Positions 2,519 to 12,745 of a stretch of DNA of 64,000 nt are shown here, one piece after another. The notes beneath the pieces were generated by a model. It was given only the letters and a program-made list of their open reading frames with translations. It made no database searches and had not been told where the DNA came from. The stretch's first letter is position 1; each line of letters begins with the position of its first letter. This DNA comes from Algoriphagus sanaruensis (GTDB lineage: Bacteria > Bacteroidota > Bacteroidia > Cytophagales > Cyclobacteriaceae). The position numbers and the translations under genes were made by a program. The DNA is taken from positions 2,484,501 to 2,548,500 of the forward strand of contig NZ_CP012836.1 of the NCBI RefSeq assembly GCF_001593605.1. The letters are read 5' to 3'.

Positions 2519-2628
2519 AGTGCAAGTCTTCAGACTTGTGCTAACCTGTATGAAGTCTTCAGACTTCCAAGTTTTAAAAGCAGTCTGAAGACTGGATCCA
2601 AAAAGGTCCAAGTCCGAAGACTTGAACC
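2519..2628 (+). repeat. Four-hairpin REP-like unit, full copy A
   Basis: The unit holds four imperfect palindromes in order. H1 (2519-2542) has arms around CAAGTCT/AGACTTG. H2 (2552-2567) is GAAGTCTTCAGACTTC. H3 (2580-2595) has the core GCAGTCTGAAGACT. H4 (2605-2628) has arms GGTCCAAGTC and GACTTGAACC with one mismatch. H1 and H2 carry the centre TCTTCAGA, while H3 and H4 carry its complement TCTGAAGA, so the unit is an inverted pair of hairpin pairs. The same unit occurs at 3063, 7543 and 8542 and, split by a RAYT gene, at 7701-8498. Confidence 0.85.
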
Positions 2629-2639
2629 AATTCACGTTG

Positions 2640-3060
2640 GTAGTTCAAATAAGCGTCGTAAATCGTAATTCAAAATTCTAACTCTTAACTCTCAAGAAAT
2701 ATCCCTTTGATCTAGCCTCTGCGTTTGGATTTCAAGCAAACCTCGTAAATCGTAGCTCATAACTCGTAACTCTCAAGAAATATCCTTTTGATCTTGCCTT
2801 TGCGTTTGGAGTTCAAATAAGCCTCGTAAATCGTAATTCGTAACTCGTAAATCAAATTGACCTCGTAAATCATAACTCGTAATTCCAAAACAGTAACTCG
2901 TAACTCTCAAGAACTATCCCTCTGATCTAGCCTTTGCGTAAGTAGTTCAAGTAAGCCTCGTAAATCGTAATTCGTAACTCGTAATTCATATAGGCCTCGT
3001 AAATCGTAATTCGTAACTCATTTTAGCTTCATAAATCATAAATCATAACTCGTAAATGCT
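2640..3060. repeat. Degenerate heptanucleotide tandem repeats (CGTAAnT family)
   Basis: Long parts can be read in steps of seven. At 2825-2852 the steps are CGTAAAT, CGTAATT, CGTAACT and CGTAAAT, and similar runs occur around 2864-2884, 2957-2980 and 2998-3055. A stop appears in every frame, so coding is excluded. The steps are interleaved with the three 64-bp blocks. This resembles the short tandemly repeated heptamers (STRR) described in cyanobacteria in its period, not its sequence; that comparison is an inference. Confidence 0.75.
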
Positions 3061-3062
3061 TC

Positions 3063-3159
3063 GACTTGTGCTAACCTGTATGAAGTCTTCAGACTTCCCA
3101 GTTTTTAAAAGCAGTCTAAAGACTGCATCCAAAAAGGTCCAAGTCCGAAGACTTGAACC
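3063..3159 (+). repeat. Four-hairpin REP-like unit, copy B with truncated H1
   Basis: Only the right arm of H1 (GACTTGTGCT) is present. H2 is at 3082-3097, H3 at 3111-3126 and H4 at 3136-3159. Spacer sequences and the downstream flank match copy A almost base for base, which points to a recent local duplication with loss of the left end. Confidence 0.85.
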
Positions 3160-3319
3160 AATTCACGTTGGTAGTTCAAATAAGCCTCGTAAATCGTAAC
3201 TCGTAAATCGTAAATCAAATTGACCTCATAAATCGTAATTCCAAAATCTTAACTCGTACTTCAAGAGTTCTCTTCGGAATTTCTTGCTATCCAACTCTTT
3301 TTTGCATTAACTTACCCTC

Positions 3320-7476: not shown

Positions 7477-7500
7477 AGTCCAAGTCCGAAGACTTGAACC
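7477..7500 (+). repeat. Isolated H4 hairpin of the REP-like unit
   Basis: AGTCCAAGTCCGAAGACTT followed by GAACC matches hairpin H4 of the unit. H1-H3 are absent, so this is the right end of a decayed copy. It is followed by the same AGTTCAGCGTTGGGAGTTC-type flank that follows the next unit. Confidence 0.7.
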
Positions 7501-7542: not shown

Positions 7543-7652
7543 AGCGCAAGTCTTCAGACTTGTGCTTATCTGTTTGAAGTCTTTGGACTTTCTAGTTTTA
7601 AAAGCAGTCTGAAGACTACATCCAATTCGGTCCAAGTCTGAAGACTTGAACC
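7543..7652 (+). repeat. Four-hairpin REP-like unit, full copy C
   Basis: Complete H1 (7543-7566), H2 (about 7575-7591, with TTTGGA in place of TTCAGA at its centre), H3 (7604-7619) and H4 (7629-7652). H1 reads AGCGCAAGTCT, TC, AGACTTGTGCT, an 11-bp stem with one G-T pair. A CCTAAAT/CCTAATT heptad pair follows at 7682-7695 before the RAYT element starts. Confidence 0.85.
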
Positions 7653-7700
7653 AGTTTAGTGTTGGGAGTTCAATTAGGCCTCCTAAATCCTAATTAACCT

Positions 7701-8498
7701 AGCGCAAGTCTTCAGACTTGTGCTTATCTGTATAAAGTCTTCAGACTTTCAAGTTTAAAATTATAAAAGCATAACCTGTTTTATAGTTTCAGAATCAATT
7801 TTTCAATAAATTCAAATACACTTTTTCCACTAATTTTTATGAGTAGAAAGTATAAAATACACAATCAGGAAAAGCTTTACTTTGTCACTTTTACTATCGT
7901 TCAATGGATTGATTTATTTTCAAGACAGGTTTACAGAGACATTTTTTTGGATTCTTTGAAATTCTGTCAAATTAAAAAAGGCCTAGACTTATGTGCCTAT
8001 TGTATTATGTCTAGCCATATTCATCTCATTTTAGGAAGAAATGGAGATCAAAAACTCGAAGACATAATTCGAGATATTAAAAAATACACCTCCGTTAAAA
8101 TCATTCAAACCATTAAAGAATCCCAAGAGGAAAGCAGAAGAATTTTTTTACTCCATCATTTTTCCAAAGCAGGTAATTCAAACCCAAACAACTCGATTTA
8201 TCAGGTTTGGCAACAGCATAATCATCCGATTGAATTAAATACAAATGAAAAAGTCCATCGATGCTTAAATTACATTCATAATAATCCTGTAGTTGCAGGA
8301 ATTGTTTTATCACCTGAAGAATACCTGTATAGCAGTGCAAAAAACTATGCACGCCATCCTGAAACGCTAATAGATGTGATTTTAATTGATTAAGGAAATT
8401 GTAATTCGTGAATTTTGAGAGCAAATTTCTAAGTGAAAAAGTTTTAAAAGCAGTCTGAAGACTGCATCCTATTCAGTCCAAGTCTAAAGACTTGAACC
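7701..8498 (+). mobile_element. RAYT element: H1-H2, transposase gene, H3-H4
   Basis: The left end is H1 (7701-7724) plus H2 (7734-7749), then AAGTTTAAAA. The right end is GTTTTAAAAG (8441-8450), then H3 (8450-8465) and H4 (8475-8498). In intact units H2 and H3 are joined by the same GTTTTAAAAG sequence, so the gene occupies precisely the H2-H3 junction. Known biology: RAYT transposases bind and cleave REP hairpins at GT-like tetranucleotides and usually sit between them. Inference: this is the autonomous form (about 0.8 kb), and the roughly 110-bp units are deletion derivatives that it can move in trans. Confidence 0.8.
7839..8393 (+). CDS. REP-associated tyrosine transposase (RAYT, TnpA_REP)
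   Basis: This 184-residue single-strand DNA transposase belongs to the IS200/Y1 HUH superfamily. It begins RKYKIHNQEKLYFVTFTIV, the first beta strand of the fold. The metal-binding HUH-type motif is in CIMSSHIHLIL (about residues 56-66, where MPNHVH is more usual). A C-terminal LNYIHNNPVVAGIV and YLYSSAKNY block (about residues 147-171) is diagnostic of RAYTs, with the catalytic tyrosine expected in the helix between these motifs. Length fits the Bacteroidota branch. No frameshift is seen, so it may be active. It is flanked on both sides by its hairpins. Confidence 0.93.
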   Translation: MSRKYKIHNQEKLYFVTFTIVQWIDLFSRQVYRDIFLDSLKFCQIKKGLDLCAYCIMSSHIHLILGRNGDQKLEDIIRDIKKYTSVKIIQTIKESQEESRRIFLLHHFSKAGNSNPNNSIYQVWQQHNHPIELNTNEKVHRCLNYIHNNPVVAGIVLSPEEYLYSSAKNYARHPETLIDVILID

Positions 8499-8517: not shown

Positions 8518-8535
8518 AGCGCAAGTCTTTAGACC
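8518..8535 (+). repeat. Truncated H1 hairpin
   Basis: AGCGCAAGTCTTTAGACC matches the left three quarters of H1 and stops abruptly 6 bp before a complete unit begins, as if one copy had been interrupted by the next. Confidence 0.6.
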
Positions 8536-8541
8536 TAGTCT

Positions 8542-8650
8542 AGCGCAAGTCTTCAGACTTGTGCTTATCTGTATGAAGTCTTTGGACTTTCTGGTTTTAA
8601 AAGCAGTCTGAAGACTGCATCCAATTCAGTCCAAGTTGAAGACTTGAACC
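8542..8650 (+). repeat. Four-hairpin REP-like unit, full copy D
   Basis: H1 is at 8542-8565, H2 at about 8574-8590 with the same TTTGGA centre as copy C, H3 at 8602-8617 and H4 ends at 8650. H4 has lost two bases in its left arm (CCAAGTTGAAGACTT). Sharing the TTTGGA centre with copy C suggests that C and D are closer to each other than to A and B. Confidence 0.85.
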
Positions 8651-8661
8651 AGTTCAGACTT

Positions 8662-8728
8662 CGTAATTCGTAACTCGTAAATCCCAAATCAATCAGAATT
8701 CGTAACTCGTACCTCGTCAATCGTAGCT
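8662..8728. repeat. Heptanucleotide tandem repeat, CGTAAnT family
   Basis: The stretch reads in register as CGTAATT, CGTAACT, CGTAAAT, CCCAAAT, CAATCAG, then AATT, CGTAACT, CGTACCT, CGTCAAT and CGTAGCT. It is the same family as at 2640-3060 and again directly follows a hairpin unit. Nothing else is seen up to the start at 8807 apart from a weak TACTTTTA promoter-like box at 8779-8786. Confidence 0.75.
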
Positions 8729-11662: not shown

Positions 11663-12745
11663 GTGAACAAATTACAGCTTTACACGAATTCCGAATTTGA
11701 TCCCTTGAGATTACGTCAGGATCCATTGGCGGATCAAGCGGTCAAAAGTTTAATCGGAAATCCCGATTGGATTACGACCATCAATAATTGGGAGTACATT
11801 CCGACTACCTTACCCGAGGAGTTTAATGTTGAGTTGACTGAGTTTTTTACTTTTTATCTCCAAAGATTAGATCATGCACAAGAAAAAGATTTAAAGCCTG
11901 GGCAGGATTTTTTTGCTCAAAAAGGGGATTTGTATTTAGCGATGTTGGGCTTTTATTCGCTGCCCTATTGCTATGCATTTGGAGATGGAGCAGAGGTATT
12001 GGTTCGATCTCAACGGATTGTGAACCAGATAGGAGAGCGACTTGGAGAAACAGGCTCCTTCGTATTGGGACTATTTGAGCCAGGTGCATTCTATCAATTG
12101 AAATCCACGTTTTTGCTAGTGGCCAAAGTGAGACTAATTCATGCCTTTAGTCGCTATTTTATTAAGCACTATGCATCAGATTGGAAGATTGAATATGGTC
12201 AGCCAGTTAATCAGGAAGATATGCTTGGAACCAATTTGGCCTTTAGCTTTATCGTTCTCCGTGGAATGATCAAGATGGGTAAAAACCCTTCTGAAAATGA
12301 GCAACAGGCTGTTCTTCGCTATTGGAAATGGATCGGGGAGTTGATGGGAATCGACATCAGCTATTGGCCGGAATCGTCCAAAGAAGCCTTTGAACTGGAT
12401 AAATTGATTCGAAGACGACAGTTGAAGAAATCGGAAGCAGGCAAAGTACTCATCAATTCGTTGGTTCGATTTTATGAGCAAACGATTCCTGATGACCTTT
12501 TAAAATCACAACTGAATGGAATCCTGAGCTTCTTTCTTGGGAAAGAGGCCGCAGAAGCCTTGGGATTGTCTGAACGAATTGAAATTTCGGGGGATATTTT
12601 GGGTTGGATGTTTGGATACCTAGGTTGGAAAAACTATGGAGGGAAAAAAGGATTCTCTGCTATCCGCCAAAACCTCGAGCTTCAACATAAACGACAGTTT
12701 GGACGTGTGCTTGGAATTCAACTTCCAGCACTTACTCGTTCATAA
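11663..12745 (+). CDS. MpaB-like (DUF2236) oxygenase family protein
   Basis: This 360-residue protein has the helical fold signature of the MpaB/rubber-oxygenase family (DPLADQAVKSLI, then AMLGFYSLPYCYAFGDGAEVLVRSQRI and a histidine-rich helix containing RLIHAFSRYFI). Family members bind b-type haem. The start must be GTG at 11663: a TAG codon lies three codons upstream in frame and the nearby ATG at 11658 is out of frame. It is divergent from the propeller operon across 50 bp. The substrate is unknown. Confidence 0.78.
   Translation: MNKLQLYTNSEFDPLRLRQDPLADQAVKSLIGNPDWITTINNWEYIPTTLPEEFNVELTEFFTFYLQRLDHAQEKDLKPGQDFFAQKGDLYLAMLGFYSLPYCYAFGDGAEVLVRSQRIVNQIGERLGETGSFVLGLFEPGAFYQLKSTFLLVAKVRLIHAFSRYFIKHYASDWKIEYGQPVNQEDMLGTNLAFSFIVLRGMIKMGKNPSENEQQAVLRYWKWIGELMGIDISYWPESSKEAFELDKLIRRRQLKKSEAGKVLINSLVRFYEQTIPDDLLKSQLNGILSFFLGKEAAEALGLSERIEISGDILGWMFGYLGWKNYGGKKGFSAIRQNLELQHKRQFGRVLGIQLPALTRS

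What the first reader, a model, noticed from the sequence alone, without database searches (positions are those of the whole stretch)
7701..8498. RAYT transposase nested exactly at the hairpin-2/hairpin-3 junction of its own repeat unit
Seen: the gene is bounded by H1-H2 on the left and H3-H4 on the right, and the interrupted junction sequence (GTTTTAAAAG) is what joins H2 to H3 in intact units. Known: RAYTs are normally flanked by REP hairpins that they process. Inference: the autonomous form is H1-H2-RAYT-H3-H4, and the approximately 110-bp units are non-autonomous internal-deletion derivatives, more like MITEs than simple REPs. I do not know of a description of a four-hairpin architecture of this kind.
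Basis: partly seen in the sequence, partly recalled or inferred. Interest (0 to 1): 0.78.

Follow-up and report, generated by a model that had tools for sequence, protein, structure and literature searches.

The report
Two-hairpin REP repeats flanking their transposase
A known kind of domesticated bacterial transposase sits here between two mirror-image copies of an unusual repeat made of two hairpins, and the same two-hairpin design, with other sequences, recurs beside related transposases in other bacteria, which gives a testable picture of how this poorly described group may recognise its DNA.

Summary
A RAYT (REP-associated tyrosine transposase; 7839-8393) lies between hairpins H1-H2 (7702-7749) and H3-H4 (8450-8498). 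The 110-bp units are inverted dimers of one ~52-nt two-hairpin module, so the four-hairpin unit is an inverted REP doublet (REPIN/BIME), a known kind of repeat. The inferred origin (RAYT element first, dimers by internal deletion) is not supported beyond this genome: at the same locus in two relatives the RAYT stands without the adjoining dimers, junctions differ between species, and 14 of 57 genus genomes without a cognate RAYT still carry modules.

New, as far as the held literature shows, is the module: a long outer and a short inner hairpin with the same apex, centres 28-31 nt apart, no GTAG tag, often a CT at the outer 5' foot and, in a second family, an almost invariant TAT(C/T) between the hairpins. 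The layout flanks many RAYTs in the genus, a good part of those sampled in family and order, few beyond. Dimers pair two foot types in 21 of 22 cases. Best reading: the REP form of Bacteroidetes RAYTs described so far as flanked by "atypical secondary structures"; the mechanism is inferred.

The parts
7699..7700 (+). CT dinucleotide at the outer 5' foot of H1; candidate cleavage site (inferred)
   Evidence: Sequence; CT at this foot in 17 of 30 modules of this family and, one base nearer the centre, 57 of 73 modules of other families
7702..7723 (+). H1 = outer long hairpin (B'), foot type 2 (GCGC/GTGC with a G.T wobble), left of the RAYT
7734..7749 (+). H2 = inner short hairpin (A'), same apex TCTTCAGA as H1
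7752..7769 (+). Degenerate copy of the dimer junction (AGTTTAAAATTATAAAAG)
7839..8393 (+). RAYT gene, 184 aa, motifs SHIH, WQ, YIHNNP
   Evidence: NCBIfam NF047646 98.9 bits over cut-off 80; Pfam Y1_Tnp 29.9 over 23; H60, H62, Y145 invariant in 19 aligned sequences; weak profile match to the solved TnpArep 4er8, E 1.1e-4 for the whole chain
8441..8450 (+). Intact junction string GTTTTAAAAG
8450..8465 (+). H3 = inner short hairpin (A), right of the RAYT
8476..8498 (+). H4 = outer long hairpin (B), foot type 1 (GTCC/GAAC)
7480..7500 (+). Lone outer hairpin B left of the array
7544..7652 (+). Complete RAYT-less dimer H1-H2-junction-H3-H4 (foot types 2/1)
8519..8535 (+). Partial outer hairpin between the RAYT element and the next dimer
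8543..8650 (+). RAYT-less dimer, H4 damaged by loss of one base
2520..2628 (+). Complete RAYT-less dimer 5 kb away
3066..3159 (+). Dimer with truncated H1 (start approximate)

Best explanation
This is a REPtron: a domesticated Y1 (HuH) transposase of the RAYT family, of the Bacteroidetes type, with its cognate repeats. The repeat unit is a two-hairpin REP of about 52 nt: on one strand it reads 5'-CT-[long hairpin B']-spacer-[short hairpin A']-3'. Both hairpins have the same apex, so the same protein probably grips both, one RAYT molecule on each. Two modules in mirror image form the mobile or amplifiable doublet (REPIN/BIME), and the RAYT gene is often itself framed by such a pair. Shown here: module anatomy, fixed spacing, shared apices, covarying stems, strand asymmetry, the CT at the outer foot, recurrence beside related RAYTs with other sequences, heterotypic dimers, and association with the cognate RAYT. 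Inferred: that the RAYT binds the B'A' strand as ssDNA, cuts at the outer CT and joins ends, so spreading modules and doublets in trans (in this genome 8 of 14 modules lie within 6 kb of the gene); and that the gene itself moves little as a unit. In this genome the doublets directly beside the RAYT are best explained as later additions around an older RAYT locus, followed by exchange between doublets and the RAYT's left end.
For: RAYT identity. Spacing: in 118 RAYT loci (best-scoring matches of four searches, not a random draw) a hairpin pair with centres 27-32 nt apart occurs on 19/30 (orthologues), 20/32 (other genus RAYTs), 24/60 (family), 18/56 (order), 5/57 (phylum) usable flanks; control distances 19-24: 0, 1, 1, 2, 2; 35-40: 6, 5, 1, 0, 4; shuffled flanks expect 0.4, 0.2, 0, 0 for the first four sets. 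Gap between the two apices in the 15 orthologous loci: 15 nt in 33 of the 41 pairs with a gap of 10-24; 102 of 112 matches in eight genomes, by eye, where 13-17 was allowed. Shared apex: 6.6 identical of the central 8-9 nt against 4.25 (sd 0.19) when partners are permuted, 86 flanks. Covariation: 97.4% of cells paired against 93.0% shuffled, score 0.160 against 0.077, 70 double changes against 25, each 0 of 500 shuffles as high. Strand asymmetry: position 29/46 of B is a C.A or A.C mismatch in 78 of 86 modules, hence a G.T wobble on the B'A' strand; that strand folds better in 4 of 4 half-units. CT at the foot: 57 of 73 modules of other families at one offset, 0-15 at the other 20 offsets, 9 at the mirror position. 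Second family: 112 matches in 38 of 72 genomes, reversed control 0; of the 102 unique ones 93 have TAT(C/T) at one place of the spacer, which the pattern left free. Heterotypic dimers 21 of 22, chance 0.46 each. Modules and cognate RAYT: present in 12 of 15 genomes with, 14 of 57 without (Fisher 1.4e-4; 12/15 against 14/37 in genomes at least 90% complete, p 0.013). Same locus in G004 and G032 has the RAYT but about 85 bp instead of 286 bp left of it.
Against: No movement was seen: no clean empty site was found, the long aligned blocks of the nearest held species being mostly 64-81% alike. No pair on either flank by this test in 3 of 15 orthologues, 4 of 16 other genus RAYTs, 16 of 30 family, 15 of 28 order and 25 of 29 phylum loci; one RAYT clade in the genus seems to use single hairpins (L061, L062, L065, L067, by eye). 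On the RAYT tree the trait needs 18 changes (shuffled 35): clustered, but not one clade. Two of the five covariation measures do not exceed shuffles (pairs with double changes 4 against 3.3; further pair types 6 against 7.4). The CT rule is weaker in the window's own family (17 of 30) and TAT(C/T) is not fixed there. One search saw only held loci; read by eye in the strict matches, doublets are 13 unlike, 1 alike (G042) and 3 unreadable of 17. G032 has a doublet in an intergenic stretch where this genome has two and G004 none, so not all doublets are recent here. That CT is a cleavage site rests on other enzymes (PMC8266576), not on this protein.
Confidence: 0.7

Rival explanations
1. One reading: H1-H2-RAYT-H3-H4 is the autonomous transposon and the 110-bp dimers are its internal-deletion derivatives, like MITEs.
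For: In this genome a full and a degenerate copy of the junction stand at the two inner ends of the RAYT segment, so a deletion between these direct repeats would give the dimer. The RAYT locus is older than the dimers directly beside it.
Against: In five other genomes the dimer junctions (16-49 nt) do not resemble the RAYT ends by eye. Dimers are heterotypic in 21 of 22 cases but clean RAYT elements in 4 of 8. All 15 genomes with this RAYT subgroup have one copy except G021, which has a second, broken one, so the element is not seen to multiply whole.
Confidence: 0.15
2. The RAYT gene was inserted into a pre-existing dimer at its junction (junction repeat = target duplication).
For: A complete and a degenerate copy of the junction flank the gene.
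Against: At the same locus in G004 and G032 the gene is present without a dimer beside it and with other inner ends; Y1 transposases are not known to make target duplications (recalled).
Confidence: 0.07
3. The hairpins are host sequences (bidirectional terminators, mRNA stabilisers) and their tie to the RAYT is incidental.
For: Modules seem to lie between genes in the stretches looked at (by eye, mechanical ORFs); 14 of 57 genomes carry modules without the cognate RAYT.
Against: Enrichment with the cognate RAYT, inverted framing of the gene at 8 of 15 orthologous loci, and other hairpin apices beside other RAYT subfamilies. A host role gained later is not excluded.
Confidence: 0.08

Closest known systems
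RAYT/TnpAREP with REP, subclass 2.6 of Quentin 2018 (Bertels group 5)
   Same: Y1 transposase, about 180 aa, WQ and YIH[QN]NP motifs, Bacteroidetes, flanked by atypical secondary structures that recur elsewhere in the genome (PMC6006769: sections 12, 25 and part 1 of 15 read, passages of the rest)
   Different: The text read gives no two-hairpin anatomy; figures and supplement could not be seen. HuH here is SHIH, not NH[LIV]H; the subclass models were not available to test membership.
REPIN / BIME (Pseudomonas, E. coli)
   Same: Inverted pair of REPs as the unit; near the RAYT; two REP types combined in one dimer, as y with z in E. coli (PMC8266576 and PMC3116915, passages)
   Different: Each half holds two hairpins with one apex, and no GT[AG]G tag (12 and 6 of 226 hairpin feet on the two strands against 9 and 10 shuffled)
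TIRtrons / TIRYT of Di Nocera 2013
   Same: Y1 transposases flanked by inverted repeats, some called double palindromic (PMC3733652, section 16 read)
   Different: 20 of their 26 examples belong to subclass 2.1 with helix-turn-helix-like tails (so Quentin 2018) and many share a GGGGWSAS motif; no fixed spacing or shared apex is described in the text read
IS200/IS605 insertion sequences
   Same: HuH/Tyr transposases that recognise hairpins on one strand (PMC8266576, passages)
   Different: Scores below the IS200 model's cut-off (21.6 of 55 bits); no second copy of the whole element in this genome

Membership tests
RAYT / TnpAREP | HuH and catalytic Tyr with Y...NP motif | tested here: met
   NF047646 over cut-off; H60, H62, Y145, N149, P150 invariant in 19 sequences
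RAYT / TnpAREP | Gene flanked by inverted palindromic repeats | tested here: met
   Met in the window; of 15 orthologous loci 8 clean, 3 with outer hairpins only, 4 in other orders
RAYT / TnpAREP | Single-strand cleavage of the REP | not testable with these tools
   needs biochemistry
Canonical REP | GT[AG]G at the 5' foot of the hairpin | tested here: not met
   12 and 6 of 226 feet, shuffled 9 and 10
REPIN / BIME | Inverted doublet as recurring unit | tested here: met
   22 doublets in 12 genomes (held loci only)
REPIN / BIME | Doublet as the moving unit | tested here: inconclusive
   doublets beside the RAYT absent in two relatives; no clean empty site
Quentin subclass 2.6 | Motifs NH[LIV]H, WQ, YIH[QN]NP | tested here: inconclusive
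   WQ and YIHNNP met, HuH is SHIH; subclass model not available
IS200/IS605 | Over the curated cut-off of the IS200 model | tested here: not met
   21.6 of 55 bits
MITE by internal deletion | Ends and inner edges shared with the autonomous element | tested here: inconclusive
   shared in this genome; not in five others, by eye only

The most novel reading that the evidence does not exclude
A second mode of REP recognition: two RAYT molecules (or a dimer) bind two hairpins with one apex at a fixed distance of about 28-31 nt, the outer 5' CT is cut, and a TAT(C/T)-type element between the hairpins replaces the GTAG guide; mobile doublets must join two foot types, so that two unlike ends are needed for synapsis.
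Probability: 0.35. Interest if true: 0.68.

Novelty: new variant of a known kind. Interest (0 to 1): 0.5.

Why it matters
Bacteroidetes RAYTs of subclass 2.6 are described in the text I could read only as flanked by atypical structures. A defined substrate (strand, spacing, apex, candidate cut site and tag) lets their biochemistry be tested directly and compared with the GTAG enzymes, and asks why doublets are nearly always heterotypic.

Tried and rejected
A strict empty site for a single module: tried with a 13.9-kb stretch around the 1.85-Mb cluster in six genomes and a 3-kb stretch of G038 in ten genomes; intergenic DNA is too diverged for a base-exact boundary. Chromosomal-integron attC sites: considered from the look of the clusters, not tested. 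Rfam: 0 matches in L087, L033 and L001. Literature: searches gave no held paper on two-hairpin REPs of Cytophagales; most subscription papers, figures and supplements were not seen, so this is not proof of absence. No structure prediction was run.

Limits of the counts. One search's list was cut and its free gap also caught back-to-back B hairpins (17 of G038's 42 matches drop out with the tighter gap), so only presence and absence is used from it here; the mean counts are inflated and not used. The first module set (108 rows) held modules read on both strands and was replaced by 86. The covariation alignment (A1) used 76 of these 86; ten were left out by hand to shorten the list, not for their fit. 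Thirteen of 118 RAYT proteins (broken, cut or overlong) were dropped from the tree. Shuffles keep dinucleotides, or fall back to simple shuffles where that failed; for the phylum set none were obtained because the script stopped, and one search repeated the counts without shuffles. A broken second copy in G021 is not among the 15 orthologous loci. One search's script names seven loci as B'A'-RAYT-AB; I took L050 out (another module lies between, by eye) and added L043 and L046 (hairpin with an insert in its loop, by eye).

Full report
What is there. The window lies in a one-contig genome of 3.88 Mb, in the genus that holds Algoriphagus aquaeductus: the nearest named RAYT, 86% identical and at the same locus, is in that species (it is the genome behind G004 by its coordinates). 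The ORF at 7839-8393 is a RAYT. It stands between H1-H2 and H3-H4 as reported. H1-H2 is close to the reverse complement of H3-H4 (53-nt arms, 75%), so the 'four-hairpin unit' is an inverted pair of one two-hairpin module. I call the outer long hairpin B and the inner short one A: the dimer is B'A'-junction-AB, and the RAYT element is B'A'-RAYT-AB.

The module as a unit. In the 15 orthologous loci 33 of the 41 A-B pairs with a gap of 10-24 nt have exactly 15; in eight genomes searched with a gap of 13-17 allowed, 102 of 112 have 15 (counted by eye). A wider pattern matches in 26 of 72 genus genomes, its reversed control in none. In this genome 8 of 14 modules lie within 6 kb of the RAYT; the others are at 1.708, 1.855-1.863 and 3.136 Mb, with a few more degenerate ones from 1.853 Mb on. 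Across 86 unique modules from held loci the stems covary (two of five measures do not exceed shuffles) and B has two foot types, GGTCC/GAACC and AGCAC/GCGCT. One position keeps a C.A or A.C mismatch in 78 of 86, which is a G.T wobble on the other strand, and that strand folds better in all four half-units tested.

Dimers. Of 22 doublets in held loci of 12 genomes 21 join one foot of each type, the exception being in G018; the types occur 71:41, so 0.46 is expected by chance (doublets of one array are not independent). In the strict matches, read by eye, 13 are unlike, 1 alike (G042) and 3 unreadable. Neighbouring modules back to back are also unlike, 10 of 10. E. coli BIMEs combine y with z REPs in a comparable way (PMC8266576, passages).

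The RAYT locus. In 15 orthologous loci (67% identity or more to the window's protein) the gene is framed B'A'-RAYT-AB in 8 (two of them with another palindrome in the loop of B'), by outer hairpins with decayed inner ones in 3, and lies in arrays with other orders in 4 (six of the eight by script, the rest judged by eye). The locus is shared with G004 and G032, between the same two genes (the other 12 do not show these neighbours within 1.5 kb). There the dimers directly beside the RAYT in our genome are missing: left of the RAYT element about 85 bp against 286 bp. As G004 is the sister and G032 next on the RAYT tree, one gain in our lineage is the shorter account. Farther off, where our genome has two doublets (2520-3159), G032 has one and G004 none. 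Only in our genome do the inner ends of the RAYT segment carry the dimer junction; in five other genomes junctions are other sequences, some alike between species by eye. I therefore take the exact nesting as a local outcome of array growth and exchange, not as the ancestral form of a transposon.

Generality. In 118 RAYT loci the distance between flanking hairpins peaks sharply at 28-31 nt between centres, in families with quite different sequences (apices TCTTCAGA, GTTTGNAAC/ATTTGNAAT, GCTCNAGC and others); within a module both hairpins tend to share the apex. The longer hairpin is the outer one in 17/19, 19/20, 17/24, 10/18 and 3/5 cases, and both flanks carry a pair in 7/15, 8/16, 10/30, 5/28 and 1/29 loci (orthologues, other genus, family, order, phylum). 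The loci are the best-scoring matches of each search, not a random sample. So the form is common in the genus, present in family and order, and rare in the phylum sample. A search with the apices of the second family found 112 matches in 38 of 72 genomes; of 102 unique ones 93 hold TAT(C/T) at one place of the spacer. In modules of all non-orthologous families together, TATC or GATA occurs in 50 of 85 spacers against 12 in shuffles. A CT stands at the outer 5' foot of B' in 57 of 73 modules of other families and 17 of 30 of this one. The GT[AG]G tag of classical REPs is absent.

Mechanism, and what is inferred. TnpAREP enzymes studied so far cut ssDNA REPs commonly at CT, probably selected through the GTAG 5' of the hairpin (PMC8266576, section 28 and passages). 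By analogy the strand 5'-CT-B'-A' is the substrate: it has the CT, in this family the better folding B', and in the second family the TAT(C/T) before A'. The shared apex suggests two copies of one protein. None of this was tested on the protein.

Prior art. RAYT framed by inverted REPs and BIMEs as non-autonomous elements: Nunvar 2010 (PMC2817692, abstract and section 8). REPINs and their possible origin from REPs of an IS200-like ancestor: Bertels and Rainey 2011 (PMC3116915, passages). Bacteroidetes subclass 2.6 with atypical structures: Quentin 2018 (PMC6006769, abstract, sections 12 and 25, part 1 of section 15, passages). Some double palindromic TIRs: Di Nocera 2013 (PMC3733652, section 16 and passages). 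I found no held paper that describes the fixed two-hairpin module.

Verdict.

Noticed in passing
L043, L046, L050 (G053, G035, G021), beside the RAYT: A palindrome of about 20 nt of the form CCTGCC...GGCAGG (a similar one in L050) sits inside the loop of an outer hairpin, as if another small palindromic repeat had inserted at the apex (by eye).
   Followed up: no
L087 about 510-662 (G038): A dispersed repeat of about 150 bp: a 3-kb query holding it has 21 or more matches in 7 of 10 genus genomes, most of those listed being this stretch (scored candidates capped at 30 each); no Rfam match.
   Followed up: partly
L033 about 12201-12325: A 125-bp intergenic stretch recurs at 80-95% identity in G070, G032, G053 and G015, and more weakly (73%) in G011; no Rfam match.
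   Followed up: partly
window 8665-8722 and 2990-3250: Degenerate short repeats of the form AATTCGTAACTCGTAAATC next to the REP arrays.
   Followed up: no
G056, one-contig genome: 28 matches to the tight module pattern (two of them one back-to-back B pair) but no RAYT of the cognate subgroup: an orphan population.
   Followed up: no
G000 C1:1700993-1701517 (L002): Second RAYT, 44% identical, with GTTTGNAAC-type hairpins; its 5' flank hairpin is damaged.
   Followed up: partly
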